From Lantana camara (lineage: Eukaryota; Streptophyta; Magnoliopsida; Lamiales; Verbenaceae), in assembly GCA_037501455.1 (NCBI GenBank), contig CM074858.1, positions 77,970,501 through 78,034,500 of the forward strand: a stretch of DNA of 64,000 nucleotides, given 5' to 3'. Numbering within the stretch: position 1 is the first letter of the stretch; every line of letters begins with the position of its first letter. The notes under the pieces were generated by a model. The model worked only from the letters and a program-made list of their open reading frames with translations, was not told the DNA's origin and did no database searches. Shown here piece after piece: positions 1,406 to 41,685 of the stretch. The position numbers and the translations under genes are program-made.

Positions 1406-4400
1406 TGTAACGCCCCGGTTTTTCATTTATACTAATGTGTCGTATTTGTTTATAAGTTGCGCAATTAAATTATCTAATTATGTGATTAATTGTTTATAAG
1501 TGTTTTAAATATTTAATTTTATTATAAATTGTTATTATTTTATTTTATTTTATTTATAATATTGCATCTCGTTAGTTTAATATTTTATTTTGTTAATCAA
1601 GTGATTAAAGTTAATTAAGTGTTATGCTAATTAATCATGCTTTAACTATATTAATTAATTAATTTGTATAATCACGTTTGACCTTGAATTTATTTAATTT
1701 TACAATTTCAAATGTTGGTTATAACTTATAATATGTGAATTATTACGAATATGTGCATGGTTGTTTAATTTGTGCATCGTTCTTGTATGAAATAATATTG
1801 AAATGTCATGGAAATGTAGTATGTCGTATATATATGTGTGATGAACATGCCTATATGCTCGGTTTATGTTTTCGAACTTATTTGACGTGTTAACGAATTT
1901 AATTTGAATTGTGGAACCAAATCGGGGGCTAATGAGCAATTAGCGCACCCTTGGTTCCGTACGTGATATCTTGAGCTCGGGAACTCGGATTCGAGTTCCG
2001 TCAACTCCGTTGAACTCGTATCGAATATTTGTGTTTAATAAACTTAGCCTTATATTTTTCCGAAATCATTTGAACCTTCGAAATCTAACCGAAAAACGAA
2101 ACGGTGACAAAACGGCCACCTTTTACTAAAAATGCCATAACTTATACAAACCTTGACCAAATTAACTATGGTTGGATGCTTTAGAACCCTAACTCAACCC
2201 TCTAACCAGACTTAAACACCCCAAACCGAGATAACCTTCTTCACATAAAGAAAACTCAGCCAAAACATTCTGATCTCCAGTTTTCCCGTAACCCTTGTGC
2301 ACCTTGGAGATTCAAAGCTCAAATCTCCTCCAAACCTCCATTAATCCACAAGGTAAGATTAGGGTTGTCATATACATTCAATATGTGTCATTTTATGCTA
2401 TGCATCCCCAATTTTGATCATGGTTTCATGAGTTTTTGGCTGAATTTGAAGAATATTAGGTTTCGAGCAATTGTGTTGATCTCATTCGTTTCTTATTGGT
2501 TTTGATTGATTCCAAGTTTGAATTTGATTTTTTTGATATCCTCTTCTCATTTATGATCATTGATTACATGGTAGTTGAAGTATTCATGAGATATCATTAT
2601 TGGCACTTTGAGGAAAATACTTGAAATGATCACTTATGCCTGCTTTTCACGTTCGATCCTTCTTAGGACTGATTTGTATGTTGTTTTGGAGTGTTTTTGC
2701 TGCATAATTGTTGCCTAGACTTACATGATCTTGTTGGTTAAAGATTGAATTTGTTGCTGCTCTGTTTCTATAAATTTTTGCCCTGTTTCGGATTGTTTTT
2801 CTTACTGTCGTTTGCTGTTCATTTCCCTTGCGGAACTGCTGTGTTTATCAGTCATTGTGGGAGTTTCTCGTGCCATTTTGTTGCTGCATAACCTACCTTG
2901 AGTGCTGCTTTTGCTGCTGTAGTTCATGCCAACGAAAACAGGGGATGTTTCGTGCTTGGTTTGTTGCTGCGTTCCTGGAATAGATCTCCCCGGGCGGGGA
3001 GATTTTTACCGTGAAAAGGCCCGGCCGGGTAATCTTTGTGCAGAAGCTTTCTGCACGAAACTCCCTGGGCGGGGACTTTTGCTGCACAAAACCTACCCGG
3101 GCGGGGAGATTGCTTCTGAACTGCTGTGCATGCTACTGCTGTCTTCTTTCTCTTCTTGAATAAATGCATGCATGCATATTGGTGTTTGTTTAATCCATGC
3201 ATGCAGATTGGTGTACGAACCTATATATATATATATGAGTAGTGTTTTGAAATGAATTGTTAATGCATGCAACCTATACATATGAATTTAAGTTTAAATA
3301 TTGCATACTATGTACGTGAATATATATATATATATTTACATATATGTTTATTATATATATTAAATATTATTTGATATAATTGAATTGTGGAAATTAAATT
3401 GTTATCCATTTCATGTTAGTTAATTCCCGATTATGATTTAAATGTAATTAAATGGTTATTTTCTAAGTGTTAATGTGCCTTAGTACGTGCCATGATCGTC
3501 ATTTAAATTCCTTGGATTGGTTTGATATGAAATATGAAATTCATGACTTAAAAGATTATGAAAGCTTCCTTGAACGAATGAATAACTCGTTTATGAGATT
3601 TAAATACATTATATATATAGTTGTGATTTCTTTAATTTAATTTACATGCATGGCTCTTTAATTTAATTTGCATGCATGATATATATATATATATTCTATA
3701 TTTTAAGTATTAATTGATTTATTTTAATTAGAATTTAAATGATATCTATTTCAGGTATTTAAAATTACCGAGTATGGCTTGAACATTTTATTTATTTTAT
3801 TTTTAATTGTAAACGTGAAATAGTACATGTTATGATTATTATATGAACTTCTTAGATTAAACTGATATGAAATGTGAACTTATGCACTTGAATGAATGAA
3901 TGAACGAATGCCTTGGTTATATGCCTTAAATTCCTTTATCGTGCACTTGAACATTTTCAAGACATAATATCATTTCTTATGCATTCACATCATGATCATA
4001 CATTGCCGTGCGTCATATATGGTTCTTTTGGAGAAATCTTGATCAAATAGGCACTCGGTAACTCGTATCCTTGTATCTTCATGGTCCAGGTGAGGGTGTT
4101 TTTGTTTTAGTTATATAACAAACCCTACAACCCTTATGTGAAAAGCTTTGGCCAAAACCTTATGAATATATATATATATATATATGGTATTTTCAAAGTA
4201 GAGTCCTCGAGTAATTTATGATCGAGTAAACCCTTTTCAAATGAATTATGAAATATGTTATGTTTCTTATGAATTGATATGTTTTGGTGAGATTATGCAT
4301 GTATGTTATGTTCACGGGCCCAGGAATTTAGTACATGTGGCTATCCGGGGAGGCAAGGGCCGACGGTGATCCCATGTGCTGATTCCATTATGTTTAACGG

Positions 4401-5428
4401 CGAAACGGACCTCGTCAAGGAGTTTTGACGAGGAAACGCTAACCGGGCTTTGAGGCCTCTTGAACCTCGTAGCCACAATGATATGTTTAGGTGGTCGGGC
4501 CTTGCAAACCCGTCCACCACCCTGAGGAAGAAGGTTGAAACTGATTTTTATGATTATGTTTATGTTTATGTATGATTGATATGCACCGAGCGGGAAGGCC
4601 GGGACACGGATAGCCCAAACAAATATGTTTTATGATATGATATATGATCTGTGTGTATTATGAGATATTGCATGATCACCTAATTAATATATTAATGATA
4701 TTTGTCGTACACGGTCGGAGTTTGGTTGGAGATGATGCACGCTCACTCGCCCAGCCTTTATGTTTATGTATGAATTATAAACTTAATAAATTTAATATGA
4801 TTAGTTGTAAAATCTGAGCATTGCTTAGTTATTCTCTTGCCCTTTTGGGAGCAAATAAAACCTTGCTCGGGATTTACGACTTGCATGTGCATGTTTTTGT
4901 ATATACGTATATTGCTCTTGTTCACTCAGTCTTCTAGAGACTGACCCTCTCCCTCCCCAACCTTTTAGTGCGCAGGTTTAGCTTTGGAGTTCGAGCTAGG
5001 CGGAGTTGTATGGAGTCTTTGAGTGGGTCAAGTTGAGTTAGGAGAGTCTCCACTCGCTTATGTATTTAAATTATGCATGATGCAATCCTATAATATTATG
5101 AACTTGAATCTTATGTAATGGTTATTGAATTGCCTTGTCGGGCTTGTTATGAATTAAAAGAGGCCTGAGGAGCCCAAGTCTGCCTGTGGTTCGAGTGTTT
5201 AATTTCGGCAGGCCCGTGGCCAATACATGTGTTTGAATTTAGTTCTCCGTTACATTATATCTTGTTGATTAGTTATATTTGCAGGGTCTAAGTTCCACCT
5301 AGCTTAGGAGGGTTTTTCTGTTTGTCTCCCGTTCGCTATGGTTTGATACGGGTGCGGATTTTACCATTTCATTACTCGTGTTGAGCCATAGTGCGGGGGA
5401 TGTGGCGCCTCACGTGTGGGGTGCTACA
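1406..5428 (+). mobile_element. Solo LTR 'A' of a Tekay-like Gypsy element
   Basis: A 4,023-bp solo LTR. It begins TGTAACGCCCC and ends GGGTGCTACA, and is flanked by a perfect 5-bp target duplication ATATC (1401-1405 and 5429-5433), the expected footprint of LTR-LTR recombination. Its last 100 bases match the 3' ends of the other LTRs here (a CGTTCGCTATG word, then GTGCGGGGG). It carries a donor-like CACAAG/GTAAGA at 2352/2353, a CTGAC-pyrimidine-GCAG acceptor-like block ending at 4975, and a palindrome cluster at 2984-3110. It has short TA microsatellites (for example 3319-3335 and 4164-4186). Nothing in it is coding. Confidence 0.9.
2984..3110 (+). repeat. Palindrome cluster in LTR A (4 units)
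   Basis: Four GC-rich palindromic units: ATCTCCCCGGGCGGGGAGAT at 2984-3003 (8-bp perfect arms, GGGC centre), CCCGGCCGGG at 3020-3029, a degenerate copy at 3061-3075 and another at 3093-3110. Spacers are unrelated T/G-rich sequence. The cluster lies about 0.6 kb after the donor-like site. Confidence 0.8.
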
Positions 5429-5433
5429 ATATC

Positions 5434-6151: not shown

Positions 6152-8922
6152 TGTGATGCCCGAACGCGGGTCATCCACATCCCCCGCACCTAGACTCGGA
6201 CTCACGCATGAAATGGAAGTCCATACATGAGCCCTAGTCTAAGCGAACGAGGACCTAAACACACCCACTAGGCTAAGCGGGGCTAAACCGGAGACCAGAG
6301 TGCGCAAAAGAATTAGCAAAAGAGCGGAAGCAAGCAAGATCAACATTCATTAATACCAGTGTTAATATTCACATTGCCACACCGGGCCAAAAGAATAATA
6401 TACAAGATCAAGAATCCCAAAATATCAAACAAGAGTTCATAAAACTCCGAAACACAAAAGTATGAAATGCAGACTCAACCTAGACCAGCTAGTACGACAC
6501 CAGCCGCACTTCCCCGCCTAGCTCGAGCAACCCTGCACTAAAGGTGGGAAAAGGAGAGGGTCAGTCCAAACACTTGACTGAGTGAGGGGGGCTCACGCAC
6601 ACCCACACACTATATAAGTATAACAAAGCAAGTAACAAAGGCGATGTCTATGAACCGGGTTAGGGTTTTGCAAGCCAAAACCTTTAAAAGAATACGTATG
6701 TATACAAAGAAATCCCATCCCGATTCATAATCCATCTAGCATAAACAGAAACAAAGATCCGGCGAGTACGAATCATCCCTAACTCCTCAGAATATCATAA
6801 AACATATCAGAATCATAAATCAATCCTTCCCCATCCAATGGCAATCGAGAATCAAACCCAATTCGCCTACTTAACATATGCACGGGGGTTGCGATCCCAC
6901 AACGTGCTCGAAGATCCACGCCTCATAAACCTCCTGGAATCGCACGTGTCACCACGAATGGGAATCATACACAGGTATAACTCGACGGCCGTTGCCGTTC
7001 TCCTTACCCACAACTCCCGGGGCCCAACATACTTACCGGAACCAAATCCCATATTTCAGGGCTTACCTCGCACCAAACATAATAAAAACGTACCAAAACT
7101 TAAGCTTACTTACGCTTATACGTATATCTTTTCCATAAAGTTTGTAAAAGTTCTCATAAGACCATAATCGTATCTTAAACAGTCATACACAAAAGAATTT
7201 ATAAGATATATATATATTCGCATGCGGGATTAAAATCATCACATTTCGGCCATAGGTCAATAACTAATACAGAAAGATCCTAAACCTCACCTTGAAACAA
7301 AAGAACCGGTAGCAAAAAGGGTTGATCCGACACCTAAGCCTCGGGCTCAACAACGTCCTGGGGTAGCTCTGAGACAAACAAACATAATACCCAAGACTTA
7401 GACTAAAAAATGTACCAATTAGACGCTCGGCAATGCTTATGAATGCAATGGATGCGTATGAGATGCACAAACGTATCTCAAGGAACATAATGAAGCATAT
7501 TGAACCAAATCTTGATCAAATAAATAGTAGAAAATTTCCTAGATCCCCTGTACTTTTGAGTACCGACGGAAAAATTTTGAGTACTTACTCAACTGACGGT
7601 TTCAAGTAAAACGCCCCTGTACTTTCGAGTACCAGTGAAAATAATTTTGAGTATCTACTCAACTGCCGACTTTAAAAGTGCAAATTCGGCAAATTCGGCC
7701 AAAACAAATTCAAACCAAGCAAGAACACTCCAAAGCCAAACTCAACACCAACATAAAGCTATGAAATCAGGCATTAACATATATGGTATCAAAAAGCATC
7801 AAAGAGACATGAGATCAAATGCACATTCTCAAAGAAACGCACACAAACGCATTTAAGAGCAAAAACCGGTAAGGTTTGCATTCAAGAAGCCAAAATGAAA
7901 TCAAACTCAACATAAAGTCACCAAAGTAAATAAAACTCATCTATCACATAATATGGCATTCAAATGCTCAAATGGGGAGAAGGGGATCAAGGGTTCTTGC
8001 CCAAAACTCAATCAAAATCCAACAAGCATGCTTGAAATCATCAAATAGACACACATAAGGCACAAATTGATCAAGAACTCCAATACCCTAGCTTTCTCCC
8101 ACAAACCCACAAGTCTCATAAATGCTATAACCCCCTAATCTAACTACCAAACAAAGGAATCAATAAATGACCCAAGAATATGCAACAACCACCACAATGA
8201 ATGCTTATAAGTGCAACAAGAACCAAGGAAAAGCAAGAATGCAACAAGTGCCATGAGACCCCCTTACTATTCACCCTCTTGCCCAAAACATGCTTCCCAA
8301 CAAAAATTCAAAGATCAAGATGAATAAATGAGGTCACTCAAGCATGTGGATTACAAAAATAAACTTACCAAGCAAAGAAATTAAACACCCAAGAGTCTTG
8401 GAGCTTGGGGTCTTGCACAACAATGGAGTTTGAAGGTTTTAGGCTTCCTTTCTCTTCTTTTTCTGATAGGTCACGATTTGGGGAGGAAAAAATGAGGAAA
8501 AGGGGCTGATTTGGTATATGAGAGAGAAAGAGAAAGTTAACAAGTAAGGCTATGGGTCCCACATAGGTATTTTAGGTATGTTTCTTGTACGTATAAGTAT
8601 TCGGGTAGGTATTTCGGTCCAAAAAGAATACGGAGGGCTCAAGACCAACACAAAAACATATAATCAAGTTCTCGAATCATATTAGACACGCAAACACGCT
8701 CAAGAATCGAAAATCACAAAACACGTAACAACGAGCAACAAGGAATTCATGTTTCACGTACGTTCACATAATTCACGTAATTCACTTAATTTCAAATAAT
8801 ACAAGTAATTTAGATAAGAAAGGAATAAGAAAAGAGGTTAAACAAATAAATAAATCACATAATTAATAATTAAAACGCGCACATAATGCGTACCTCTTCG
8901 TCTGGCGGATCGGGGTGTCACA
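6152..8922 (-). repeat. 3' LTR of the chromovirus
   Basis: A 2,771-bp LTR, TG..CA bounded. On the minus strand it starts TGTGACACCCCG (at 8922). It pairs with 13602-15630 with only scattered substitutions and a 7-bp indel (near 7000 against 14452), so insertion was fairly recent. It holds a strong donor-like TTG/GTAAGT (GT at 8368-8367) and an acceptor-like TAGTGCAG ending at 6533. Small open frames inside it (for example at 6838 and 7635) have no support as genes. Confidence 0.9.
7550..7662 (-). repeat. Palindrome cluster in chromovirus 3' LTR (4 units)
   Basis: Alternating units: GTACTTTTGAGTAC (7550-7563), TTGAGTACTTACTCAA (7577-7592), GTACTTTCGAGTAC (7619-7632) and TTGAGTATCTACTCAA (7647-7662). 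Each has perfect 5- or 7-bp arms. The same four are found in the 5' LTR at 15006-15118. Confidence 0.8.
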
Positions 8923-8958: not shown

Positions 8959-8962
8959 GATC

Positions 8963-12709: not shown

Positions 12710-12715
12710 TTTCGC

Positions 12716-13601: not shown

Positions 13602-15630
13602 TGTGACGCCCGAACGCGGGTCATCCACATCCCCCGCACCTAGACTCGGACTCACGCATGAAATGGAAGTCCATACATGAGCCCTAGTCTAAGCGAACGA
13701 GGACCTAAACACACCCACTAGGCTAAGCGGGGCTAAACCGGAGACCAGAGTGCGCAAAAGAATTAGCAAAAGAGCGGAAGCAACCAAGATCAACATTCAT
13801 TAATACCAGTATTAATATTCACATTGCCACACCGGGCCAAAAGAATAATATACAAGATCAAGAATCCCAAAATATCAAACAAGAGTTCATAAAACACCGA
13901 AACACAAAAGTATGAAATGCAGACTCAACCTAGACTAGCTAGTACGATACCAGACGCACTTCCCCGCCTAGCTCGAGCAACCCTGCACTAAAGGTGGGAA
14001 AAGGAGAGGGTCAGTCCAAACACTTGACTGAGTGAGGGGGGCTCACGCACACCCACACACTATATAAGTATAACAAAGCAAGTAACAAAGGCGATGTCTA
14101 TGAACCGGGCTAGGGTTTTGCAAGCCAAAACCTTTAAAAGAATACGTATGTATACAAAGAAATCCCATCCCGATTCATAATCCATCTAGCATAAACATAA
14201 ACAAAGATCCGGCGAGTATGTATCATCCCTAACTCCTCAGAATATCATAAAACATATCAGAATCATAAATCAATCCTTCCCCATCCAATGGCAATCGGGA
14301 ATCAAACCCAATTGGCCTACTTAACATATGCACGGGGGTTGCGATCCCACAACGTGCTCGAAGATCCACGCCTCATCAACCTCCTGGAATCGCGCGTGTC
14401 ACCACGAATGGGAATCATGCACAGGTATAACCCGACGGCCGTTGCCGTTTCGGGGCTCCTTACCCACAACTCCCGGGGCCCAACATACTTACCGGAACCA
14501 AATCCTATATTTCAGGGCTTACCTCGCACCAAACATAATAAAAACGTACCAAAACTTAAGCTTACTTACGCTTATACGTATATCTTTTCCATAAAGTTTG
14601 TAAAAGTTCTCATAAGACCATAATCGTATCTTAAACAGTCATACACAAAAGAATATATAAGATATATATATATTCGCATGCGGGATTAAAATCATCACAT
14701 TTCGGCCATAGGTCAATAACTAATACAGAAAGATCCTAAACCTCACCTTGAAACAAAAGAACTGGTAGCAAAAAGGGTTGATCCGACACCTAAGCCTCGG
14801 GCTCAACAACGTCCTGGGGTAGCTCTGAGACAAACAAACATAATACCCAAGACTTAGACTAAAAAATGTACCAATTAGACGCTCGGCAATGCTTATGAAT
14901 GCAATGGATGCGTATGAGATGCACAAACGTATCTTAAGGAACATAATGAAGCATATTGAACCAAATCTTGATCAAATAAATAGTAGAAAATTTCCTAGAT
15001 CCCCTGTACTTTTGAGTACCGGCGGAAAAATTTTGAGTACTTACTCAACTGACGGTTTCAAGTAAAACGCCCCTGTACTTTCGAGTACCAGTGAAAATAA
15101 TTTTGAGTATCTACTCAACTGCCGACTTTAAAAGTGTAAATTCGGCAAATTCGGCCAAAACAAATTCAAACCAAGCAAGAACACTCCAAAGCCAAACTCA
15201 ACACCAACATAAAGCTATGAAATCAGGCATTAACATATATGGTATCAAAAAGCATCAAAGAGACATGAGATCAAATGCACATTCTCAAAGAAACGCACAC
15301 AAACGCATTTAAGAGCAAAAACCGGTAAGGTTTGCATTCAAGAAGCCAAAATGAAATCAAACTCAACATAAAGTCACCAAAGTAAATAAAACTCATCTAT
15401 CACATAATATGGCATTCAAATGCTCAAATGGGGAGAAGGGGATCAAGGGTTCTTGCCCAAAACTCAATCAAAATCCAACAAGCATGCTTGAAATCATGAA
15501 ATAGACACACATAAGGCACAAATTGATCAAGAACTCCAATACCCTAGCTTTCTCCCACAAACCCACAAGTCTTATAAATACTATAACCCCCTAATCCAAC
15601 TACCAAACAAAGGAATCAATAAATGACCCA
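13602..15630 (-). repeat. 5' LTR of the chromovirus, outer end deleted
   Basis: Colinear with 6152-8175 and nearly identical, including the four-unit palindrome cluster (15006-15118). Homology stops abruptly at about 15630 in the middle of the LTR. The missing piece is the U3 side, where the promoter should be. The next base belongs to LTR B in opposite orientation. Confidence 0.9.
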
Positions 15631-23711: not shown

Positions 23712-26700
23712 TGTAACACCCCAATTTCTCGACCGTACAGGTACGCGCGCCACGCGTGTGAGTTTTGAGATTTAGGATTTATCTAATTTGAATTCTTGTG
23801 AATTAAATGATTTATAAACACTCATTTTATGGGTTTGATTACGTGAGTTTGTATTTAAATTCCCGAGCATGATTAAGTGTTTAATTATTTGCCATTTTGA
23901 GAATTCTATGCTTAATTGACCTTACTTGAAACTTTGTTTAACTTATGGACTTAATTGATAATTTCTTAAGGACTTATTTGTAACCTTTTATAAATGGAGT
24001 ACCTAATTGCATGACTTTAGAGTTATTAAGGACTAAGTTGCAATTTCCTTTTTCCTCTCTCTCCCTCTTATACGATATAACATATATACATACACACATA
24101 CCCTTTTTCTTCATTTTTCATTCAAGACCAAGAGGCAAGACTTTTCATTTCCTTTCCTTCTCGAAATCGATCCAAGGAGAAAGCCAAGAGCCAAGTATGT
24201 TTTTCCATTTTCAACAAGAATCAAGCTCAAGATCTTCTTACTTTCTTCCCCTTCATCTTCTCCTTCTTTCAAGATAAGATACATGTGTATATCTTTGGTG
24301 ATTCATGAAGGTTTTGGTTAGGGCTTTGGATGTTTGTTGGATTCATGAACTTAAATACATTATTTTTGAAGTTAGGGAGATAATATGTGCCTATTTGATA
24401 TGAGTTACATGAAGTTTAGAGCATAGATGATCATTTTCATTTTGGGGTTTCTTGAGTAAATTTTGATGGATCAAAGCATGCTTCTTTGGATTAAATGTGG
24501 CCTAAATGATATATTGGACTTATATGGATGATATGTGATTGATTTAAAGTGTTTTGGTTGAGATTTGAGGTAGTTTTGATGAACTTTGGTTTCTCCTGTG
24601 TTAACCCCTGTTTTTGCTGCGTTCTTTCTGCCCAGAATAACTTCCCCGGCGGGTAGATTTTTGAACTAAAAAGTACCCGAGTGGGTACTTTAGTCCAAAG
24701 GGTTTTCTGCACTCTTTTTCCCAGGCCGGGTAAATTTCTTTCTTGTTTTTCTCCGGCCTGGTACACCCTCATCTGAAGTTCGTTTGACTTTATTTTTGAT
24801 CTGTTTGAAACCTTTTGAAGTCTAGAACAATCTCCAATTGGAATCACCTCAATATAATTTCCCATTTGTGAGATATTATCAATTCTTTTTGGTGTCGCCA
24901 CTTTACAGACAATTTACGTTCATCCAACTTTGGCCCTACGCAATTTTCACCTCGTTTTGAAGCATGATCCGTGCCACATATCATTAGAAAGACCTATGTC
25001 TCTAATTTCATTTCCAACAAACAAAACCCAATTCCAATTTGTATAACTCAAGATATTCCCATTTTCCTACAGCTTGTGCATCCCCGAAAACTGTAAGCTT
25101 TTCCTAAACTTCACCAAAACCGTTCTTCTTGCTTTCCTTTCACCCGTTTGGCTCCTATATGTGACTTATATGAATTATATGCTTACTTAATTGGTAATTA
25201 TGCTCTTATGTGACACTCATTGGTCTTTACTTGCTTAAACTTGATTGTTTGAACTCGTACTTTATATATGAATTGAATTCGTTTGAGTAATTAAGCATAT
25301 GAACACGATCACACCATTCCATGAAATTCTTATGCTTTATTTCATATTGAAACACATCATGAGAAGTTTCATCACTTCATAAACATTCTTGCCGTGCGTC
25401 CTACTTGGTTCCATTTCGAGTCGTGTCTCACAAGTACACCATGTTTCCTTTCTTGTTTAGTGTTCTCCTCGGTGGAGACTTTCAGGCCTGTGGTTCTTCT
25501 CCTGCTTCTTTCATACGCTTGGAGGTGAGGGTTTTTCTTTATAAACGACCTATGACCTTGCATGAAGTGAAAGTATGCCAAATGTTTTTCATATTAAAGT
25601 TAGCCATATCCTTTATACCGGCTAGGTACCGAAAATGTTTTATAACTTGTGTAAGTGTTAACCTTGAGTTTGTTTTGTGAGATCATGTATGTGCCCCCAG
25701 CTCTTCTAGCGCTGGATTAGCCGAAGTGGTTCCTGTTCTTGTTCCTGGGGCCCAGGGGCTTGTGTATTGAGTGAACCGGGGAGGTATTGGGCGGACGATG
25801 ACCTCTTGCACGAGCCCCATCCTCTTGGACTACCCGGATACCCACCAGGACGTTTGGTGGGAGATGGGGCTCCGATCTGAGGGAGTCATGAACCCGAAGA
25901 TCACCCTAATCCGTGGATGTGGAGGTTAGCTACCGGCCACATTGCAACCGGAGAAAGGAGATTAATTTGTACTTGTTTTCCCGCCTGATAATTAATTATA
26001 AATCCTGTTTCCTGCTTGTTTCCTGACTGCCTGCTTGTACCTGTCATTTAATAGGTGAAAAGAGGAGTCTAGGATGGATTAACTACCCATTCTCGCTGGG
26101 TCCCCTAAAATATCAAGCATAGATATCCGTAACCTCTGGCATGCCCCCCCAGTCACTGTACAACACCTGAGCTCGTAGACGTTAAGGTAAAATGAGCATC
26201 AACAGAGGGCGTACGGATATCGACACATGCATTTTATATCCTGTTTACCTGACCTGCATGCTTGAACATAATTCCACCCGTACGTATTAACTTACTTCTG
26301 ATTCCTGTTCCCTGTTTCTTGTTTTAATAACGTACAGTGGAATTATGCCTGCCTGATTGCCTGTTTAGATATATATGCGTGGGTTAACCCCTTCACCCAG
26401 TCAGTTGACTGACCCCTCCCTCTCATTCTTATTAGTGTTGTCTTGCACGTTCAGTGGTCGTTAAGCGGGAGTCTTGTGAAGTCTTTGTTCGAGTCTTGGT
26501 CCTGCATACTGCATTGTACCGTTTACTTGTTTCCTTCTTTGTATTCGGGCCTTGTAGGCCATTTTGTATCTTTAATGTTTTATTGAACTCGGGACAGGAT
26601 CCTGAACTAGTGGAACTCGTATTTACCTTCCGTTTTTATTACATTTGTTCCATTGAATGATTGTCTTGCTTCCGCATTCCTATTTCATTAATTTGTGGAA

Positions 26701-26846
26701 TAGGGTCTAGTCCGCCTAACACAGGATGGTTTTTTTTGTTCTGTCTCCGTTCGCTGTGAGCTTGGTTCATGTATGGACTCTCCATTTCATGAGTGGACCG
26801 GGTTCACAGTGCGGGGGATGTGGGGCCCTCCGTTCAGGGTGTCACA
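23712..26846 (+). mobile_element. LTR 'C', complete, plus orientation (3' LTR)
   Basis: 3,135 bp, TGTAACACCCC to GGGTGTCACA, preceded by a polypurine tract, so it is a 3' LTR. The next bases GTACA (26847) match the inside of a sister LTR (F), suggesting that its element inserted near the start of F. The donor position reads ATAAGA (about 24275), a G-to-A change of the expected GT. Confidence 0.85.
24641..24763 (+). repeat. Palindrome cluster in LTR C (4 units)
   Basis: AAGTACCCGAGTGGGTACTT (24671-24690) is perfect (8-bp arms, GAGT centre). Degenerate relatives lie at 24641-24656, 24720-24733 and 24751-24763. Confidence 0.75.
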
Positions 26847-27212
26847 GTACAGGTGCCATGCGTGAGAGTTTTGAGAATTAGGTTTATTTAATTCTCTTGT
26901 TGATGTAATTACGTGATTTAATTCTTTTAATTTGATTACTTGTGATTTCTTTTAAGCCTTTAAATTATTTATTTTGTGAATTATGTCTTTTAATTATCCG
27001 AGCATGCCTAAGTATTTAATTATTTCATAATTGTAAGAATTTTACTTAATTGTAACTTTTGGAAACTTTCGGGATTCAGTTGATAATTTGATAAGGACTA
27101 ATTTGTCACATACATAACATTTCATACTTGATTGCATTCATTTGAATTTAACAAGGACCAAAGTGCAATTTGTTTCTTTTCTCCCCATATGGATCGATAT
27201 ATCTATATACAC
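26847..27212 (+). mobile_element. LTR 'F', first part (start missing)
   Basis: Begins GTACAGGTGCC, which in LTR C lies some 25 bases inside the LTR, so about 25 bases of F are absent. It continues after solo LTR D at 39449. The last five bases TACAC are the D target duplication. Confidence 0.8.
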
Positions 27213-27755: not shown

Positions 27756-30700
27756 TGTAACATCCCGCTCGCTCGCCCGTACAGGTACGCCACTTCGAGA
27801 TTTTTATATGAGCATTTAGATTAATTTAATTATGAAAATACGTGTTATTTTAATGATTATGTGATTATTTGAATTTATTTGAATTAATTTATATATTTAT
27901 AAAATTGAATATTTAAACGTTTTTAAGTTTTTAAACTTATTTTTAATTCGTTTGAGTTTCAATTCGTTTCGAAATTTCGTGAAAATTTGATATGCATGAA
28001 TTATACGTGTTATGAATTCATTTACGTGCTCGTTTTAGTTTTTCGGACTTGTTTGATATGGTAACGCACCATATTTTATTTGTTGGGGACTCGAGGGCCT
28101 AACTAGTTTTAGCGCGCCTTGTGTTCCGGAATTTATATCTTGAGCTCGGGAATTCGGATTCGAATTCCGGAAGTGACGCCGGAATCGTAACGAAGATTAC
28201 GAACTAAGGAACCTAGCCTTGTATTTTTCTAAGCCCGTTTGATCCTCCGAATTTCGCCCGAAAGGTGATTCTCGCACAGATTTACCACCCTTTACCGTTT
28301 TGCCCGTAATTTATTCGTTTTAACTCCGTTTGACCAGATTCTTTAACCTATTTCTTCCTAAAACACCTACCTACCTTCCCACTTGCTCATTTCCCTCATT
28401 TCAGCAGCATCTCAAGGACCGAGAAAGAGCAGGAGAAGAGAAGAGAGAGAGGGATTCCCATCACTATTCACCCAAGCCGGATTTTGATCTCGTTCGACCT
28501 CCATTCTTCATCAAATCGAAGAGGTAAGCACATATTACTGATGTACATCTTCTCCCCTTTCATTTGAGACCTCTTTTGCTTGCATTCATGGAGTTTTGGG
28601 CTGAATTGATTGAACTTGTGAATAGTAGCGGGTTTGTGGTAATTCCTTTATATCTTGCTCGTTTTTGATCCAATTCTTGATCGGTGAAGTGCTACGGGAC
28701 CCTTGTTGTATACTTGATCTATTACTTACCTTGAACTTCATGTGTGTTCCGAGTTTGAGGCTCCACCATTTCTGAATATTTGAGTTTTGGAAGCTTTGTG
28801 TTTAATTTGGGTATTTCATATTCTTCCTGGTATTTGCTTGATATTTGGCTCGATTTGTTGCATTTCCTTGCTTGCCTTGTTGTCTTGGTTTGTTCTTATC
28901 ATGCATAAGCCATGGCTGGACCTTCCCCTGCTCCCCTCCATGCCAAAACGCTGCTGTTGCTGCTTTATTTTCGAAAAGGAAGGGCCAACACGGACTTATC
29001 CGATTTCTTTGAAAAGTTGACACGGCCGTGTTGAGCTGTCGAGTTGGGGCTGCTATTTTTAATAAAATGTGACACAGCCGTGTCACATTATGCCTAAGAA
29101 TGAACATGGCCGTGTCCTAACTTTCGAATTGGAATTTATTTGTTAACTTTGCAACTGTTGCCGCCGTGCATGGGAGTGGAGATGGCTTGCTCATGTGTTT
29201 TGTTTCTTAATTGCTTTCATGCATTAATATTGTTTGTTTTAAATTGCTAACAACATTCATGATTGGATTATATAATAATATATGTATTGCAATTAATGTA
29301 AGTAGATTACAATTTGCTATAATATATAAATATGTTTGTCTTGTATTGTTAATTATGAATTTAATTAAAACCCTTTTTACGTGTTGATCTTTTGTATTGC
29401 GTGTGTGATTCTTATTCCGTGTTTTATTTCTTCTCGCTTCACCTATGCCTCGTATGTAATGTTAACTTGTTATATTATATGTTAAGATGTTTAATTTGAT
29501 TTTATGGACTTGTTTTCAATGTGTAAACGTGACCGGGATTGCATATTCGTTTTGATGCTATGTGTGAAACTTTCTTGAGCTTGTTGCATTCCTTGCTCGT
29601 TCTAACCTTGTATATGTACGAGTTGTGATATAATTTGCTATGTATGATGTTTATTTGACATGTTATGCTTTAATTCTTGCCTCATTCTTATGATTCGACT
29701 CTTGGGTACGTGCATGAACTTGAACGCTGAACGTGCTATATCTTGTTACTTCTTTTGCATCACTTGCATACATATGCATATGCCGAGCGTCTAATTGGTT
29801 CATGTTAAGTCTAAGCTTGTCATTTGCAATTTGTTTTGCTCTTAGGTTTGTCTCGAGGTCGAAGAGATGGTTCCTTTTGTTCGGTTTGGTCGACAAGGTG
29901 AGGTTTCTTTCTTTTAGTTATTATGACCTACAACCCTATATGTGATTTCAAGGCCTCATGTGACCTATACATATATTTATACTTAGATACGTGTTCGATA
30001 TGTAATTTGTGGGAATTGGCCCTTTTGTTATAAAACGTTTGAAAAAAACTTTTATGTATAAGTAAGCTATTTTCGTTCTTTTGTTTTGAAAAGGGTTGGC
30101 GTGTGTTTGTGATAGTTTTGGCGAGATAAGCTTTTTGTGATCAGTGTAAGTGTAAGTTTGGGACCCAGAGTTGTGTGGTTGGGAGACCCAGGACGACCAG
30201 CGGGGTCGCCGGTGCAAGCCCGGGACACTTCTCCACTAATAGGATCAACCCGAAACCCACTCGGAGGGAGGTGGGGGACGGAGTCCTTGGGCGTAAGTGT
30301 CATGAAACTCACGACCTTGACGTTTCAACGTGGATGCGAAGGGTGCCCACCCTTCCATCCCATGGAGTAAGGAGGTTTGTGTTTATGTTTTGTTTCGTAT
30401 CTTCGCGCGATAAGAGTATAGTTTTGCATTTTGAAGGAGATTAGTTGTAACTCGTTCTCGCCGAGTTAGTAGGATAAGCTTTGTTTCCGTCTAAGATTCG
30501 TGAAACGTGTGAGGACTTATAATCCTTAAAATTGGTTGATTTTGGCCTTCGGCCCTAAACTTTTTCTATATATGCTATCACGTGTCAAAATAATTTGGAT
30601 TGCAAAAACCACATCCGGTTCATGAATACTCTAAGATTTGAATATGCTATGCTCTATATTTTTGTACGGGTGCATGTGTTAGCCCCCTCAATAGTCTCTT

Positions 30701-31205
30701 GGACTGACCCCTCTTCGTGGTTTCTTTTTCCCCCTCTGCTTCTTGAGTTTGTAGGTGCAGGTCTTCGGTTCGTGCTAGGCGGTGTCTTTTACTTTGAGTT
30801 GTTCGAGTTGTATAGGAGAGTCCTTGCATCCTTGCATCTTTACTTTCAGTTTTGGTACTACGTATAAAAATGTATAAGTTTGGTACTATGTATAAGCTTT
30901 ATATGATTTATGATTCAGAATTTGAGCTTCTGTTATATGATTCATTTGGCCTTGGATGGGCATAACTTGTATAATTGGCATAAGTTTTGGCATGTATGTT
31001 TGTATTTTGCGATCTTGGTAGCTTCCGCTTTTGCTTTTGTGTATTTGCGCACTCTGTTTTGAGGGTCTTGACCGCCTAACTACATCGTGAGTTTTTGTTT
31101 ATCTCCGTTCGCTGTAGCTTGGTGCGGGTGCGGAGATCCCATTTCGTTACTCGCATTGGGCTATGGTGCGGGGAGATGTGGCACCCTTCGCTCTGGGGTG
31201 TTACA
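27756..31205 (+). repeat. 5' LTR of element E
   Basis: 3,450 bp, TGTAACATCCC to GGGGTGTTACA. Donor-like GAAGAG/GTAAGC (GT at 28524); acceptor-like TTTGTAG or GTGCAG ending at 30754 or 30760, behind a GACTGACCCCTC block. Close to the 3' LTR apart from scattered changes and a 53-bp difference in the palindrome cluster. No coding content. Confidence 0.92.
28988..29117 (+). repeat. Palindrome cluster in E 5' LTR (4 units)
   Basis: Units on the theme GACACGGCCGTGTC: 28988-29001 (degenerate), 29019-29032, 29071-29084 (GACACAGCCGTGTC) and 29103-29117. The 3' LTR has only three. Confidence 0.85.
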
Positions 31206-33929: not shown

Positions 33930-36900
33930 TGTAACATCCCGCTCGCTCGCCCGTACAGGTACGCCACTTTGAGATTTTTATATACGCAATTAAATTAATT
34001 TAATTATGGAAATACGTGTTATTTTAATGATTATGTGATTATTTGAATTTATTTGAATTAATTTATATATTTATAAAATTGAATATTTAAACGTTTTTAA
34101 GTTTTTAAACTTGTTTTTAATTCGTTTGAGTTTCAATTCATTTCGAAATTTCGTGAAAATTTGATATGCATGAATTATACGTGTTATGAATTCATTTACG
34201 TGCTCGTTTTAGTTTTTCGGACTTGTTTGATATGGTAACGCACCATATTTTATTTGTTGGGGACTCGAGGGCCTAACTAGTTTTAGCGCGCCTTGTGTTC
34301 CGGAATTTATATCTTGAGCTCGGGAATTCGGATTCGAATTCCAGAAGTGACTCCGGACTCGTAACAAAGATTGGGAACTAAGGAATCTAGCCTTGTATTT
34401 TTCTAAGCCCGTTTGATCCTCCGAATTTCGCCCGAAACGTGATTTTCGCACAGATTTACCACCCTTTACCGTTTTGCCCGTAATTTATTCGTTTTAACTC
34501 CGTTTGACCCGATTCTTGAACCTATTTCTTCCTAAAACACCCACCTACCTTCCCACTTGCTCATTTCCCTCATTTCAGAAGGTCAAGGACCGAGAAAGAG
34601 CAGGAGAAGAGAAGAGAGAGAGGGATTCCCGTCACTATTCACCCAAGCCGGATTTTGAGCTCGTTCGACCTCCATTCTTCATCAAATCGAAGAGGTAAGC
34701 ACATATTATTGATATAAATTTTCTCCCGTTTCATTTGAGACCTCTTTTACTTGCATTCATGGAGTTTTGGGGCTGAATTGATTGAACTTGTGAATAGTAG
34801 CGGGTTTGTGGTAATTCCTTGATATCTTGCTCGTTTTTTATCCAATTCTTGATCCGTGAAGTGCTACGTGACCCTTCTTGTATGCTTGATCTATTCCTTA
34901 CCTTTTATTTCATGTGTGTGCCGAGTTTGAGGCTCTACCATTTCTGAATATTTGAGTTTTGGAAGCTTTGCGTATAATTTGGGGATTTCATGTTCTTCCG
35001 GGTATTTGCTTGATATTTGGCACGATTTGTTGCATTTCCTTGCTTTCCTTGTTGTCTTGGTTCATTCTTATCAAGCATAAGCCATGGCTGGACCTTCCCC
35101 TGCTCCCCTCCATGCCGAAACGCTGCTGTTGCTGCTTTATTTTCGAAAACGAAGGGCCAACACGGCCGTGTCCGATTTCTTTGAAAAGTTGACACGGCTG
35201 TGTCAAATTATGCCTGAGAATGAACACGGCCGTGTCCTAACTTTCGAATTGGAATTTATTTGTTAACTTTGCAACTGTTGCCGCCGTGCATGGGAGTGGA
35301 GATGGCTTGCTCACGTGTTTTGTTTCTTAATTGCTTTCATGCATTAATATTGTTTGTTTTGAATTGCTAACAACATTGACGATCAGATTATATAATAATA
35401 TATGTATTGCAGTTAATATAAGTAGATTACAATATGCTATAATATATAAATATGTTGGTCTTGTATTGTTAATTACGAATTTAATTAAAACCCTTTTTAC
35501 GTGTTGATCTTTTGTATTGCGTGTGTGATTCTTATTCCGTGTTTTATTTCTTCTCGCTTCACCTATGCCTCGTATGTAATGTTAACTTGGTATATTATAT
35601 GTTAAGATGTTTAATTTGATTTTATGGACTTGTTTTCAATGTGTAAACGTGACCGGGATTGCATATTCGTTTTGATGCTATGTGTGAAACTTTCTTGAGC
35701 TTGTTGCATTCCTTGCTCGTTCTAACCTTGTATATGTACGAGTTGTGATATAATTTGCTATGTATGATGTTTATTTGACATGTTATGCTTTAATTCTTGC
35801 CTCATTCTTTTGATTCGACTCTTGGGTACGTGCATGAACTTGAATGCTTAACGTGCTATATCTTGTTACTTCTTTTGCATCACTTGCATACATATGCATA
35901 TGCCGAGCATCTAATTGGTTCATGTTAAGTCTAAGCTTGTCGTTTTCCCTTTGTTTTGTTCTTAGGTTTATCTCAAGGTCGAAGAGGTGGTTCCTTTTGT
36001 TTGGTTTTGTCGACAAGGTGAGGTTTCTTTCTTTTAGTTATTATGACCTACAACCCTATATGTGATTTCAAGGCCGCATGTGACCTATACGTATATTTAT
36101 ACTTAGATACGTGTTCGATATGTAATTTGTGGGAATTGGCCCTTTTGTTATAGAACGTTAGAAAAACACTTTTATGTATAAGTAAGCTATTTTCGTTCTT
36201 TTGTTTAGAAAAGGGTTGGCGTGTGTTTGTGATAAGTTTTGGAGAGATAAGCTTTTTGTGATCAGTGTAAGTGTAAGTTTGGGCCCCGGAGTTGTGTGGT
36301 TGGGACTTGGGAGACCCCGGACGACCAGCGGGGTCGCCGGTGCAAGCCCGGGACACTTCTCCACTAATAGGATCAACCAGAAACCCACTCGGAGGGAGGT
36401 GGGGGACGGAGTCCTTGGGCGTGAGTGTCATGAAACTCAGGAACCTGACGTTTCAGCGTGGATGCGAAGGGTAGTAAGGACGTTTGTGTTTATGTTTTGT
36501 TTTGTATCTTCGCGTGATAAGCTTTGAGTTTTGCATTTTGAAGGAGATTAGTTGGAACTCGTTCTCGCCGAGTTACTAGGATACGCTATATTTCCGTCTA
36601 AGATTCGTGAAACGGGTGAGGACTTCTAATCCTTAAAATTGGTTGATTTTGGCCTTCGGCCCTAAACTTTTTCTATATATGCTATCACGTGTCAAAATAA
36701 TTTGGATTGCAAAAACCACGCTCAGTTCATGAATACTCTAAGATTTGAATATGCTATGCTCTATATTTATGTACGGGTGCGTGTGTTAGCCCCCTCACCA
36801 GTCTCTAGGACTGACCCCTGTTGGTAGTTTCTTTTTCCCCCTCTGCTTCTTGAGTTTGCAGGTGCAGGTCTTCGGTTCGTGGTAGGCGGTGTCTTTTGCT

Positions 36901-37311
36901 TTGAGTTGTTCGAGTTGTATAGGAGAGTCCTTGCATCCTTGCATTTTACTTTCAGTTTTGGTACTACGTATAAATATGTATAAGTTTGGTACTATGTATA
37001 AGCTTCATATGATTTATGATTCGGAATTTGAGCTTCTGTTATATGATTCATTTGGCCTTGGATGGGCATAACTTGTATAATTGGTGTATGTTTTGGCACG
37101 TATGTTTGTATTTTACGATCTTGGTAGCTTCCGCTTTTGCTTTTGTTTATTTGCGCACTCTGTTTTGAGGGTCTAGACCGCCTAGCTAGAGCGTGAGTTT
37201 TTGTTTATCTCCCTTCGCTGTAGCTTGGTGCGTGTGCGGAGATCCCATTTCGTTACTCGCGTTGGGCTATGTTGTGGGGAGATGTGGCGCCCTTCGCTCT
37301 GGGGTGTTACA
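33930..37311 (+). repeat. 3' LTR of element E
   Basis: 3,382 bp, TGTAACATCCC to GGGGTGTTACA, ending against duplication ATACA. Same donor-like site (34695). Palindrome cluster of three units at 35160-35235. Confidence 0.92.
35160..35235 (+). repeat. Palindrome cluster in E 3' LTR (3 units)
   Basis: ACACGGCCGTGT (35160-35171), GACACGGCTGTGTC (35191-35204) and ACACGGCCGTGT (35224-35235). The middle unit appears to be a fusion of units 2 and 3 of the 5' LTR. Confidence 0.85.
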
Positions 37312-37316
37312 ATACA

Positions 37317-39443
37317 ACTATCCAAGTCAATAATTTATTCATTTCAATTCATGTAATACTTGGCCCGGCAAGTGAGGGCATTCTCCAACCTTACTCCAAG
37401 TGTAAGTGAAACATGCTTACGTGATTATTTAACGATTGATCATGCAATTCAGTTACAGTGCATAGGTACAACAGTGTATTCAGACAATACAATCAAGGAG
37501 TGGAAATCATGCAATAACCCGAGGACAATCCGTGGTACCGGACCCGTCGCTAGTCTCCTTCTCCCTCCAATGATGGGAAGGTAGCTAGCCTTCACTATCC
37601 ACGACGTGTTGAGTAGAGGGTACATGAATCCCTAAGCACGGAACTCTTTCCTCCACTAATCTCCTAGCGGATTCAGGTGTCATCCCAATGTGGTGAGGAT
37701 AGCGCCAGAGTTACCCGTCAGCCCTTGCTTTCCCGGTTGGCTCAAGCCACTACCCTTGGGCCCAATCGTGAACATGCTTTACTCGCCAAACGTGCTTGAT
37801 TCATGACAATAACATAGATTGCTTGCTTCCTTTTCATGAACATGACTTGCTTGCATTTAAAGTGAATGGTTTGTAATCATGAATATGTTTATGGAAAACT
37901 ATAAATATAAATACCTTTTGTCCGAAAGTTCACGTAAGGGTTGTATAGGTTCTATGTAACTAGAATTAAACCTCACCTGACAGGCGACATGACGACTCAT
38001 GGATGCGTGAAGGTGCTCATGATCAACAATCTCCGTCCCGGAGAAGAATTGGACAAGAAAACGGGACAATGTATGTGCATGAGACAATAACTTAAGAATA
38101 TTATCAAATAGGACGAACGGTTTAACCACATAACGAGGTGACATGCATTCACGAATGTAGCATACAAATATCATATTATGACATGTAATTGATCATATAA
38201 TAACATGTTGGGGTCAATTAAGGGTAAAGAAAAGGAATTGAAAATCTTATTTTTATGCAGAATGTTTCTGCCTCTCCAGTGACTTGGGAACGGCTGTTCG
38301 GGGTTTTAGTACAAAGTGGGAAGGACCGTTCCCAGCTCCTCGACACTGTGCCCCGAAGATGGGAAGGGCCGTTCCCGTCTGTGAGACAAAGTGAGAACGG
38401 TCGTTCCCATCATCGCCGCCATGCACACCATTCAAAATATGGGAACGGCCGTTCCCAAATACAAAGGGAACGGGAAGGGTCGTTCCCGTTATGCAGACAT
38501 TACAGAAACAGAGCATGAAGAACAGGGGAGCTACGAACCCCAGCCAAAACTCACCAAAATCATCATAATCCAATTCCTAAATGTAGAATTTCATGAACTA
38601 CACATATATTCATGTTCAAGGTACCATAAAACTAATATAAACACTTAGCTCAAGCTTAGATCACCAAGAATTCAAAATTAGACCTCATGAACATATATAC
38701 CATGAAATTCCATAATTCTCAAGATATGAACATGAAATTCAAGTCTAAAGCTTAGAATCATGCTTCTAACAATTAAACACAAGTTATTACATAAGAATCA
38801 TAACCTTAGTTTCATCTAATAAATTCTTAAGAAATCACATATATAGCCATGTATACCTTGGAATGAAATAGATGGAAGAAGATGATGAAAATAGGTGATT
38901 GAGCTCCCAAAACATAAATTTCCTTGGAAAAACTTGATTAATTGGATGGAAGATAGCTTGATGATGATGATGAACTCCCACTTCTCTTCTTCTTTGATGG
39001 ATAGACCGAGAGATGGAGGTGATAGAGATGAATATGATTGATGATATAAAATGAAATGAAGGTTGTGGAAGAGATGCATATATCGTGATATATCTTGGAA
39101 CAGAGTGTTATTTGCTATTGAATCCTCCAAACATATAAGTCATACAATTAAGGACACAAAGATTAAAGAATGATCAATTTAGTCCACAAGGTTTTCATGC
39201 AATTTAGTCCTTAAAGAAAAGGGAATGAGCATTTAAGGACAATTAAGCAATTAAATTCCGTTTGCACAATCATTCTCAAATTGACACGTTTTCACATATT
39301 TTCACGTAGTCATGTTGAAATACAATTTATAAAATTACTATAGCACGTATAAATAGAATAACGAATTTAATAAAATAAAATCCTAACGCTCGAAACTCAC
39401 ACGTGTCGAGCGTACCTGACTGTCTGAATATTGGGGCGTTACA
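37317..39443 (-). mobile_element. Solo LTR 'D', 5' part
   Basis: Continues D after element E. The minus strand begins TGTAACGCCCC at 39443. Donor-like CCAAG/GTATAC near 38856. Together with 27213-27755 it makes a solo LTR of about 2,670 bp, related to C, C-prime and F. No coding content. Confidence 0.9.
38286..38487 (-). repeat. Palindrome cluster in solo LTR D (6 units)
   Basis: Six 16-base units on GGGAACGGCCGTTCCC: 38286-38301, 38318-38333, 38361-38376, 38393-38408, 38441-38456 (perfect) and 38472-38487. This is the largest cluster in the window. Confidence 0.88.
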
Positions 39444-39448
39444 TACAC

Positions 39449-41685
39449 ACACCATACATACACCTATTTCATCTTCTTCATCCTAAAAACAAGAAACAAA
39501 GCAAGATTTCTTCCATCTTTTCTCCCCTTCAATCGATCCCAACAAGGAAACAAGGGCAAAAGATTTTCCTCCATTTCTCTTCAAGGAATCAAGCTTTGAG
39601 CCATTTCTTCTCTTTCATTTTCCTCCATCTTCAAGGTATGATGAGATGAGCATATATTCGAATTCATGGACACAAGCTAGGGCTTTCAAATTTTATGAAT
39701 TCCATGGTATGTTTTGAACTGTTGCAACGATTTAAAGTTAGTTTCATGCATATATAACTTGAGATCATGGAATGTGGAGCATGGATGATTACTTGATGGG
39801 TTTTATATGAGAACATTTGTTGAATTCATGCATGAAAACTTGGATTATTTGAAGTTAAATTGAGATATATGATGCTTAAACATGTTTCCTTGAGTTATTT
39901 GGATGAATCCCTTGGTTGGGTTGGAGTTTAGCATGTGTTGGGGTTGTGGTTGATCAAGAAGAAGCCATGGAAGCTTGTTGTTGTTGTTGAGCTACGAGAA
40001 GAAGAAGAAACAGGGCATGCATCTCTGCATGGGGTAACGCCCGTTACCCCATTTACACTGGAGGGAGGTAACGCCCGTTACCTCCATGCTGCTGCGAAGG
40101 ATTGAGCCACTGACCTGGGTAATGCCAGTTGCCCATTTTCTTCATTGAGGCGCTAACACCCATTACTGGCCGCAGAGAAGGCTACTGACTCCCTTAACTG
40201 GAGTTCCTAGCCTTTGCCTTGAGGGGAGTAACCCCTGTTTCAACGTTTGAGTAGGGGATGTTTATGTAATTTCTCCATAGTTTCATTACTATTTGGTACT
40301 TTAATTACTTTCATCGTTTTCATTAATTCCTTGATTCAATTACGTGACTTTGGCATGATTAAGACTTCATTATGCAACATGGAACACTCCTGCCATATGA
40401 ACTTGCGCATAATATGATCTTATAAACATATCATGCATATTATTATCATTGTCGTGCTTCATACTTGGTTCATATTGAATCGAGTCTCACTCGTGTCTTG
40501 TTTCCTTGTCCAGAGAGTTCTCAGGAGAGCGACGAGCCTACTGTGTAGGGTCCTAGGAGTCTTCTTTGTCCTCTTTTTGTTCGGTACATGTGAGGAAATG
40601 TTAGGTGATTAATGTATAAATCCCTACAAGCCGGTTATGTGATATTTTGGCCAAAAACCTATTGTATCTATATATAAATACCTTACTTTAAAATGATCAA
40701 TTGATTTTAAATGTACCTTGAACACGATCCTATCCCATTTTGGCGAGAGATTTGCACTTCCTGGGGCCCAGGGGCTTGTGTATTGAGAGAACCGGGAAAG
40801 CATGGGCTGACGGCTATCTCTTGCATAGTATTGAGAGACCTTGGAGCAGCCCGGACGTCCATCAAGAGGTTTGGTGGACCGATGGGATTACGGTCAATGG
40901 GATTCATGTACCCATTGATCACCTTGTCCTGGGTGGTAAGGGCTAGCTACCCGAGCCACCAACCCAGAGGAAAAACGAGTAATTGCGTACGTGAAATTGA
41001 TCTTGTAACAAAGTGACACTTAATTAATTGCATGATCACCTAATAACTTATCCTGTACACTAAAGGAGTAAGGTTGGAGAATGCTCACTCGCCGAGCCAC
41101 TGTATCACTTTCCTGAGATGAATTTATTAAGTTGTAATGCCATACATTGAAAGATATATTTTACTTTTCTTCTGAAAACCTTGTATGGAATTATGGCTCG
41201 CATGAATTTACCGCTTTATATATCTTATTGATACCATTCACTCAGTCTTGTAGAGACTGACCCCTCCCTTCATTGTCCCTCAGGTTTCCTTGTAGCCTTA
41301 GCTAGGCTGGAAATTACTTTACTTATTGTAATTTCATATCTAGCTCGTGTCACACGGTTGATGTACCACACACTTATGTTTCAGTTTGTTATGTATTTTG
41401 ATTAGGCCGTGTAGGCCATATACTCTTGTTCTCTTGGAGGTAAACTTGATCTTGTGAATATTGGATATTCTATCGGCCTTATTATGTCATAGCTTCCGCG
41501 TTCTTGACTATACTCTTGAATATATTATGTTTGGATGCATGAATGGTTGGTACAGGGTTAGTCCTGCCTAGCCAGGGTCCGTGTTGTGTCTCCGTATGCT
41601 AGGATTAGACTGCTATACGGACTATATTTGTATATGAGTTTGGTCTTAGTGCGGGGGACGTAGGGTCCCACTCTCGGGCTTCACA
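39449..41685 (+). mobile_element. LTR 'F', second part
   Basis: Resumes F after D and ends TCGGGCTTCACA at 41685. Donor-like TTCAAG/GTATGA near 39635; acceptor block CTGACCCCTCCC..CTCAG ending at 41283. The next bases GACCC (41686) belong to LTR G, the apparent insertion target. No genes. Confidence 0.85.
40029..40170 (+). repeat. Palindrome cluster in LTR F (4 units)
   Basis: Unit 1 (40029-40052) has perfect 10-bp arms ATGGGGTAAC around GCCC. Unit 2 (40064-40085) has perfect 9-bp arms GGAGGTAAC around GCCC. Units 3 (40117-40134) and 4 (40151-40170) are degenerate. Confidence 0.88.

What the first reader, a model, noticed from the sequence alone, without database searches (positions are those of the whole stretch)
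2984..40170. Element-specific palindrome clusters at one fixed place in Tekay-type LTRs
Nine LTRs from seven elements carry 3-6 short palindromes about 0.9-1.7 kb from the LTR start: 2984-3110, 7550-7662, 15006-15118, 19289-19381, 24641-24763, 28988-29117, 35160-35235, 38286-38487 and 40029-40170. Units within one LTR share arms (for example GGGAACGGCCGTTCCC six times in D, GACACGGCCGTGTC in E, AAATCCACTCCCGTGGATTT in A-prime). Arms differ completely between elements, while most keep a 4-base G/C-rich centre (GGCC, GCCC, GGGC, GGGA). Surrounding LTR sequence is alignable, so the clusters are replaced or converted as sets. Possible roles, all inference: RNA stem-loops acting as a self-recognition or dimerisation code, protein operators, or small-RNA sources. 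LTRs B, C-prime and H lack them. I know of no published description.
Basis: partly seen in the sequence, partly recalled or inferred. Interest (0 to 1): 0.87.

Follow-up and report, generated by a model that had tools for sequence, protein, structure and literature searches.

The report
Paired palindrome arrays in plant retrotransposons
A large group of plant jumping genes carries, at one set place in its long end repeats, short mirror-image DNA words arranged in pairs about 32 letters apart; each family uses its own word but keeps the layout, which looks like a docking platform for a DNA-binding protein.

Summary
Seven elements (nine LTRs) carry them 0.93-1.7 kb from the LTR start. Among copies examined in the same 1.27-Gb plant genome, 25 of 30 E-type, 30 of 30 D-type, 19 of 20 G-type (3 units or more), 12 of 12 F-type (2 or more), 16 of 20 A'-type and 5 of 6 X-type (31-32-bp doublets) keep them. 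The unit is a dyad of 14-18 bp; the module is a doublet of like dyads with near-fixed centre spacing: mostly 31-32 bp in E, D, G, X and A', 34 in F, 28-29 in C. Of 9096 exact E-type neighbours 25-55 bp apart genome-wide, 5236 lie exactly 32 bp apart and 33 at 33-40. In D and E, units are more conserved than spacers, and cores show no excess of compensatory changes. This favours DNA sites read by a dimeric or tetrameric protein over RNA hairpins. Arms do not differ completely: E, X, D and F share an ACGG|CCGT-like core. Closest known: Sirevirus repeated palindromic motifs. The binding protein and the function are inferred.

The parts
1406..5428 (+). LTR A (solo, ATATC on both sides)
2984..3110 (+). 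array A: 4 like dyads, centres 2993.5, 3024.5, 3068.5, 3100.5 (31, 44, 32 bp)
6152..8922 (-). 3' LTR of element C
7550..7662 (-). array C (3' LTR): two kinds of dyad alternating, 28, 41, 29 bp; no CGG core
13602..15630 (-). 5' LTR of element C, truncated at its start; PBS-like site at 13582-13593
15006..15118 (-). array C (5' LTR)
18334..20602 (-). LTR A' (5' part)
19289..19381 (-). array A': 3 dyads, centres 19298.5, 19339.5, 19371.5 (41 and 32 bp); 9 of 20 fetched relatives have 4 or more
23712..26847 (+). LTR G (3' LTR, purine tract just upstream)
24641..24763 (+). array G: 4 dyads of the type TACCCGG[G/C]CGGGTA, 32/45/31 bp
39444..42170 (+). LTR F, main part (first part 26848-27212, cut off by the D insertion); PBS-like site at 42179
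40029..40170 (+). array F: 4 dyads of the type GGTAACGCCCGTTACC, 34/51/34 bp
37312..39443 (-). LTR D, main part (solo LTR starting at 39443; rest at 27213-27755, interrupted by element E); TACAC on both sides
38286..38487 (-). array D: 6 dyads of the type GGGAACGRCCSTTCCC, 31/48/32/43/32 bp in element orientation
27756..31205 (+). 5' LTR of element E (ATACA on both sides of the element; PBS-like site at 31215)
28988..29117 (+). array E5: 4 dyads of the type GACACGGCCGTGTC (the first decayed), 32/52/32 bp
33930..37311 (+). 3' LTR of element E
35160..35235 (+). array E3: 3 dyads, 32/32 bp; one unit fewer than E5, as if two units had recombined

Best explanation
Each cluster is a cis-regulatory DNA array in the 5' half (probably U3) of the LTR. 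It is built of doublets of like dyad sites about three helical turns apart. A sequence-specific protein binds each dyad as a dimer, and the two dimers of a doublet contact each other from one face of the helix. Usually two or three doublets together recruit the factor that sets transcription of the element or its escape from silencing. The CGG|CCG-like core is the common contact; the outer 3-5 bases give family specificity. Arrays evolve by recombination between units and doublets, and arms change symmetrically through the units of an array. SHOWN: the arrays, their place, the spacing, unit conservation above spacers in D and E, unit gain and loss, symmetric arm differences between families. 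INFERRED: protein binding, dimer or tetramer geometry, location in U3, regulatory role. My first guess is a host transcription factor; its identity is unknown.
For: Doublets: D 86 of 147 and E 48 of 71 neighbour intervals at 31-32 bp; G, A', X at 30-32 and F at 34. Exact E-type neighbours 25-55 bp apart: 9096 places, control 0; 5236 at exactly 32, 33 at 33-40. The 50 plus-strand places listed fall at 31-32 (27), 41-43 (5) and 51-54 (18), near 3, 4 and 5 turns. D-type: of 99 listed places 71 at 31-33, 24 at 41-49, 2 at 26, 2 at 38. Units against spacers: D 0.93 against 0.85 column identity (29 copies); E 0.93-0.97 against 0.69-0.73 (19 copies), and between subfamilies S1 and S3 82-94% against 14-21%. 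Compensated cells in cores: D 3 seen, 3.2 expected; E 0 and 0.6; G 0 and 1.0. In E the array is a conserved island (0.88-0.93) between variable stretches (0.55-0.74) (15 copies).
Against: No binding, start-site or expression data. In G units (0.83-0.92) and spacers (0.77-0.86) overlap. In D the array is not an island: flanks downstream are as conserved as the spacers or more, and in E the later LTR half is more conserved than the array (0.91-0.98). Units were found by likeness to the family motif, which biases unit conservation up and compensation counts down. Copies share descent, so the spacing counts are not independent, and spacers of some family pairs keep up to 10 of 15-16 matches at the best shift. 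F uses 34 bp, C 28-29, and gaps of 45-48 in D, G and X are not whole turns. No common TATA-like site. Predicted RNA folding is strong.
Confidence: 0.58

Rival explanations
1. Self-recognition code: the arrays are bound by a protein from the element or its autonomous partner (as VANC proteins bind motif arrays of their own VANDAL family), and arms diversify with that protein to escape silencing or cross-talk.
For: Family-specific words in one conserved geometry and symmetric arm differences are what a co-evolving pair would give. VANC precedent in passages of PMC5735166. A discussion passage of PMC12844716 says active sunflower Tekay elements encode an extra ORF whose product resembles dsRNA-binding proteins.
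Against: Element C has no ORF of 200 aa or more besides those matching gag, protease and RT to chromodomain, and its pol ORF ends 41 bases from the 3' LTR. Element E has 2.7 kb inside and no Pfam match in the 7 ORF pieces tested of 17 ORFs listed, so any factor would act in trans there. VANC21 motifs lie in one orientation (passage); these are dyads.
Confidence: 0.15
2. RNA hairpins: the palindromes act in the transcript as stem-loops for dimerisation, packaging or as a source of small RNAs, as proposed for maize Sirevirus LTR palindromes.
For: Low folding energies on both strands. Sirevirus palindromes are small-RNA hotspots (citing passages). The outer extensions in E show 24 compensated cells against 9.1 expected, though subfamily descent alone can give this.
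Against: No excess of compensation in cores, with the caveat that units were found by motif likeness. Separate hairpins need no fixed 32-bp spacing. In D position 6 stays C while its partner, position 11, is C or G, so that pair is not kept. Small RNAs may be a host consequence. No Rfam match at gathering threshold in the window.
Confidence: 0.17
3. Mutational by-product: short palindromes spread and homogenised by template switching and unit-unit recombination, carried without function; the fixed spacing is inherited from a few ancestral arrays.
For: Unit loss and gain are common: E3, L021 and L028 with fewer units, L048 with one more, L105 with six. Copies are related, so spacing classes may reflect few ancestors; weak spacer likeness between families.
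Against: Units stay alike while spacers turn over in D and E, and 31-32 bp recurs in five arm types. Of 9096 E-type neighbours only 12 lie at 34-40 bp.
Confidence: 0.1

Closest known systems
Sirevirus (Ty1/copia) repeated palindromic motifs, RM boxes (Bousios 2010, PMC2829016: section 9 and passages read; Bousios 2016 Genome Research not held, seen only in citing passages)
   Same: Element-specific palindromic boxes clustered at one place in the LTR, alike within an element and different between elements, mostly with a CGG-CCG signature
   Different: Other superfamily (here a gypsy element with a chromodomain-like end); arrays start 0.93-1.6 kb rather than mostly 0.2-0.4 kb into the LTR; doublets near 32 bp, not mentioned in what I read. 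Copy number per LTR overlaps (3-6 here; 3-14 in the 3' LTRs of their Table 3)
VANC target motif arrays of Arabidopsis VANDAL transposons (PMC5735166, passages read)
   Same: Family-specific short motif arrays in non-coding DNA that multiply and diverge together
   Different: DNA transposon; 9-bp motif in one orientation, not dyads; the encoded binding protein is known there, unknown here
Tnt1 U3 BII boxes (PMC3316501, passages; that they are 31-bp tandem repeats is recalled only)
   Same: LTR boxes said there to bind defence-induced DNA-binding factors
   Different: Copia element; nothing on paired dyads or changing arms in the passages seen

Membership tests
Sirevirus RM boxes | carried by a Ty1/copia Sirevirus | tested here: not met
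   Element C: gag, RVP_2, RT, RNase H, integrase zinc domain, Tf2-1 SH3 and a chromo domain (22.1 bits, below the 25.1 cut-off); the other six elements were not tested for pol
Sirevirus RM boxes | several near-identical palindromic boxes clustered in the LTR | tested here: met
Sirevirus RM boxes | CGG-CCG core (12 of their 13 motifs) | tested here: inconclusive
   At the dyad centre in E, X and D, partly in F, G, A and A', absent in C
Sirevirus RM boxes | at least 8 copies per element | tested here: inconclusive
   3-6 units per LTR; internal regions not counted
Sirevirus RM boxes | cluster starting 200-400 bp into the LTR | tested here: not met
   Starts at 930-1579 bp
Sirevirus RM boxes | upstream of the TATA box | tested here: inconclusive
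   Well-conserved TATA-like sites about 0.85 kb downstream in E; none downstream in D
Sirevirus RM boxes | small-RNA hotspot | not testable with these tools
   no small-RNA data
VANDAL/VANC anti-silencing system | element encodes the protein that binds its own motif array | tested here: inconclusive
   No extra ORF of 200 aa or more in C; no Pfam match in 7 ORF pieces of E; autonomous partners not examined
Tekay-type chromovirus | gypsy pol order with C-terminal chromodomain | tested here: met
   Element C only, chromo domain weak
Tekay-type chromovirus | reverse-transcriptase tree placement in Tekay | not tested

The most novel reading that the evidence does not exclude
Probability: 0.15. Interest if true: 0.92.

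Novelty: new variant of a known kind. Interest (0 to 1): 0.72.

Why it matters
The arrays are very abundant: exact E-type neighbours number 9096 places, and D-type ones 17,926 forward and 17,402 reverse matches, in one genome. A fixed site geometry with changing words gives a testable handle on how large gypsy families stay separately regulated. It predicts a binding assay with a sharp spacing optimum, and it extends the palindrome idea from copia Sireviruses to a second superfamily. It also marks thousands of like potential binding platforms scattered through a plant genome.

Tried and rejected
Plain dyad density in single LTR copies: weak, cluster best in 3 of 8. RNA covariation as the constraint: no excess in cores, though units were found by motif likeness. 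A strict helical-turn rule for all families: rejected, since F is 34, C 28-29 and some gaps 45-48. Fully unrelated spacers as proof of constraint: softened, since several family pairs keep weak spacer likeness and S1 spacer 1 resembles S3 spacer 2 at 11 of 18. Known RNA families: none at gathering threshold. A promoter anchor: no common TATA-like site found. Prior description for Tekay-type LTRs: none noticed in the listings of searches, nor in the passages opened of PMC6911290, PMC11963269, PMC11302176, PMC8282616 and PMC3212565; most listed papers were not opened and the library lacks most subscription papers.
Full report
ANATOMY. Boundaries come from self-comparison, terminal motifs and primer-site matches and reading the junctions. 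A is a solo LTR (+, 1406-5428). C is an element on the minus strand (LTRs 6152-8922 and 13602-15630, the latter truncated). A' starts at 20602 (-), D' at 21963 (-) and G at 23712 (+). F is a 5' LTR in two pieces (+). D is a solo LTR (-, starting at 39443) interrupted by E, an element (+, 27756-37311). H is a further element (-, 3' LTR 55150-58749). A, D and E have matching 5-base flanks. Pieces of C match gag, protease, RT, RNase H, an integrase zinc domain, Tf2-1 SH3 and a weak chromodomain. E has 2.7 kb between its LTRs and no Pfam match in the 7 plus-strand ORF pieces tested of 17 ORFs listed, so it looks non-autonomous.

OBSERVATION. All nine clusters are there. From the LTR start they begin at 930 (G), 951 (F), 957 (D), 1222 (A'), 1231-1233 (E), 1260 (C) and 1579 (A). 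Repeated G+C-rich dyads occur 14 times in the window and 0 times in each of 30 shuffles; 9 of the 14 are in the clusters of D, E and F. Counting any dyads in single, decayed copies is not enough: the cluster is the best window in 3 of 8 LTRs, and A' and F have a better window elsewhere that beats shuffles.

GENOME COPIES. The window's assembly (1.27 Gb) was searched with LTR pieces beside the clusters. E: 25 of 30 loci (two of them the window's own) carry the cluster; in the other 5 the LTR likeness breaks between anchor and cluster zone. D: 30 of 30 (one the window's own) have 5-7 units, 25 of 30 exactly 6. G: of 20 fetched out of 40 places listed, 15 have 4 units, 4 have 3 and 1 has 1. F: of 12 fetched, 12 have at least 2 units and 11 a 34-bp doublet. 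X, a family sharing part of the F anchor at about 80%: 6 of 23 listed places were fetched; 5 of 6 show 31-32-bp doublets, and L096 has one unit beside what looks like the end of a nested LTR. A': of 20 fetched out of 41 rows listed, 16 show 31-32-bp doublets, L108 and L116 have other spacing, L113 two distant units, L100 none.

ARCHITECTURE. The repeating module is a doublet. Typical centre spacings: E 32/52/32; D 32/47/32/43/32; G 32 or 31/45/31; X 32/45/32/43/32; A' 32/41/32; A 31/44/32; F 34/51/34 (with 41/34 beyond in L091); C 28/41/29. In E, each of the 25 cluster-bearing loci has at least one 32-bp interval. Without any LTR anchor, two exact E-type 12-mers 25-55 bp apart hit 9096 places (control 0). 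Exactly 32 bp: 5236. 33-40 bp: 33, of which 21 at 33 and 12 at 34-40. The 50 plus-strand places listed, all on contig C1, fall at 31-32 (27), 41-43 (5) and 51-54 (18). For the D-type pattern (17,926 forward, 17,402 reverse) the 99 listed places fall at 31-33 (71), 41-49 (24), 26 (2) and 38 (2). Listed places are the first on one contig, not a random sample, and copies are related by descent.

UNITS. E GACACGGCCGTGTC; X GGAAACGGCCGTTTCC; D GGGAACGRCCSTTCCC; F GGTAACGCCCGTTACC; G TACCCGG[G/C]CGGGTA; A' AATCCA[C/T]GGGGGTGGATT. D, X and F differ by one symmetric base (GGG, GGA or GGT before AACG), so these arms are variants on a shared core rather than unrelated. C is the exception.

EVOLUTION. 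D: 0.928 column identity in units, 0.854 in spacers, 0.795 upstream and 0.862 downstream (29 copies, one of 30 left out). E: 0.93-0.97 in units, 0.69-0.73 in spacers (19 copies chosen for complete geometry). G: 0.83-0.92 and 0.77-0.86, overlapping (14 copies). Between E subfamilies S1 and S3 units are 82-94% alike and the 18-base doublet spacers 14-21%; S1 spacer 1 does resemble S3 spacer 2 (11 of 18), so doublets may be shuffled as modules. Some spacers keep weak likeness between families. Core pairs show no excess of compensatory change (D 3 against 3.2 expected, E 0 against 0.6, G 0 against 1.0). Units were located by motif likeness, which biases these measures. In E the array is a conserved island in a variable stretch, but the later LTR half is more conserved still; in D there is no island. 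Unit loss by joining of neighbours is seen in E3, L021, L028 and L066.

READING. Base-specific conservation, symmetric half-sites and near-fixed spacing of about three turns fit dimers of a DNA-binding protein on one face of the helix. Strong predicted RNA folding follows from palindromes in general and is not by itself evidence for an RNA role. That the arrays lie in U3 and govern transcription is inference; no common TATA-like site was found.

KNOWN WORK. Sirevirus RM boxes are the closest relatives in kind (PMC2829016, section 9 read; small-RNA link through citing passages). That paper calls the motif Sirevirus-specific and absent from the classic retrotransposons it compared. For Tekay-type LTRs I noticed no description in the listings of searches or in the passages opened. 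VANC arrays (passages) supply the self-recognition analogy.

Noticed in passing
1980-1999 (A), 20196-20215 (A'), 28149-28168 (E5), 34323-34342 (E3): A second, single palindrome (GGAACTCGGATTCGAGTTCC type) lies at offset 388-594 in three elements, with a symmetric double change between A and E.
   Followed up: no
45141-45777 and 49028-49380: Tandem and inverted arrays of a CGAGGGAATTCCGACG-like unit in two blocks about 4 kb apart, near a second primer-site match (44925) and an integrase-like HHCC motif of copia look (52682).
   Followed up: partly
856-908: A doublet of ACGTG-type dyads 52 bp apart, outside the LTRs described.
   Followed up: no
L030:240-300 and L095:140-360: Palindrome-rich stretches of the GTGTCCGACACGTGTCGGACAC type, apparently from other inserted sequence.
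   Followed up: no
31206-33929: Element E has 2.7 kb between its LTRs and no Pfam match in the pieces tested; four pairs of E-family loci lie 6.1-6.4 kb apart, as if related copies were equally short.
   Followed up: partly
23712-27212: LTR G ends where LTR F begins, with the first bases of F missing: two unlike LTRs abutting directly.
   Followed up: no
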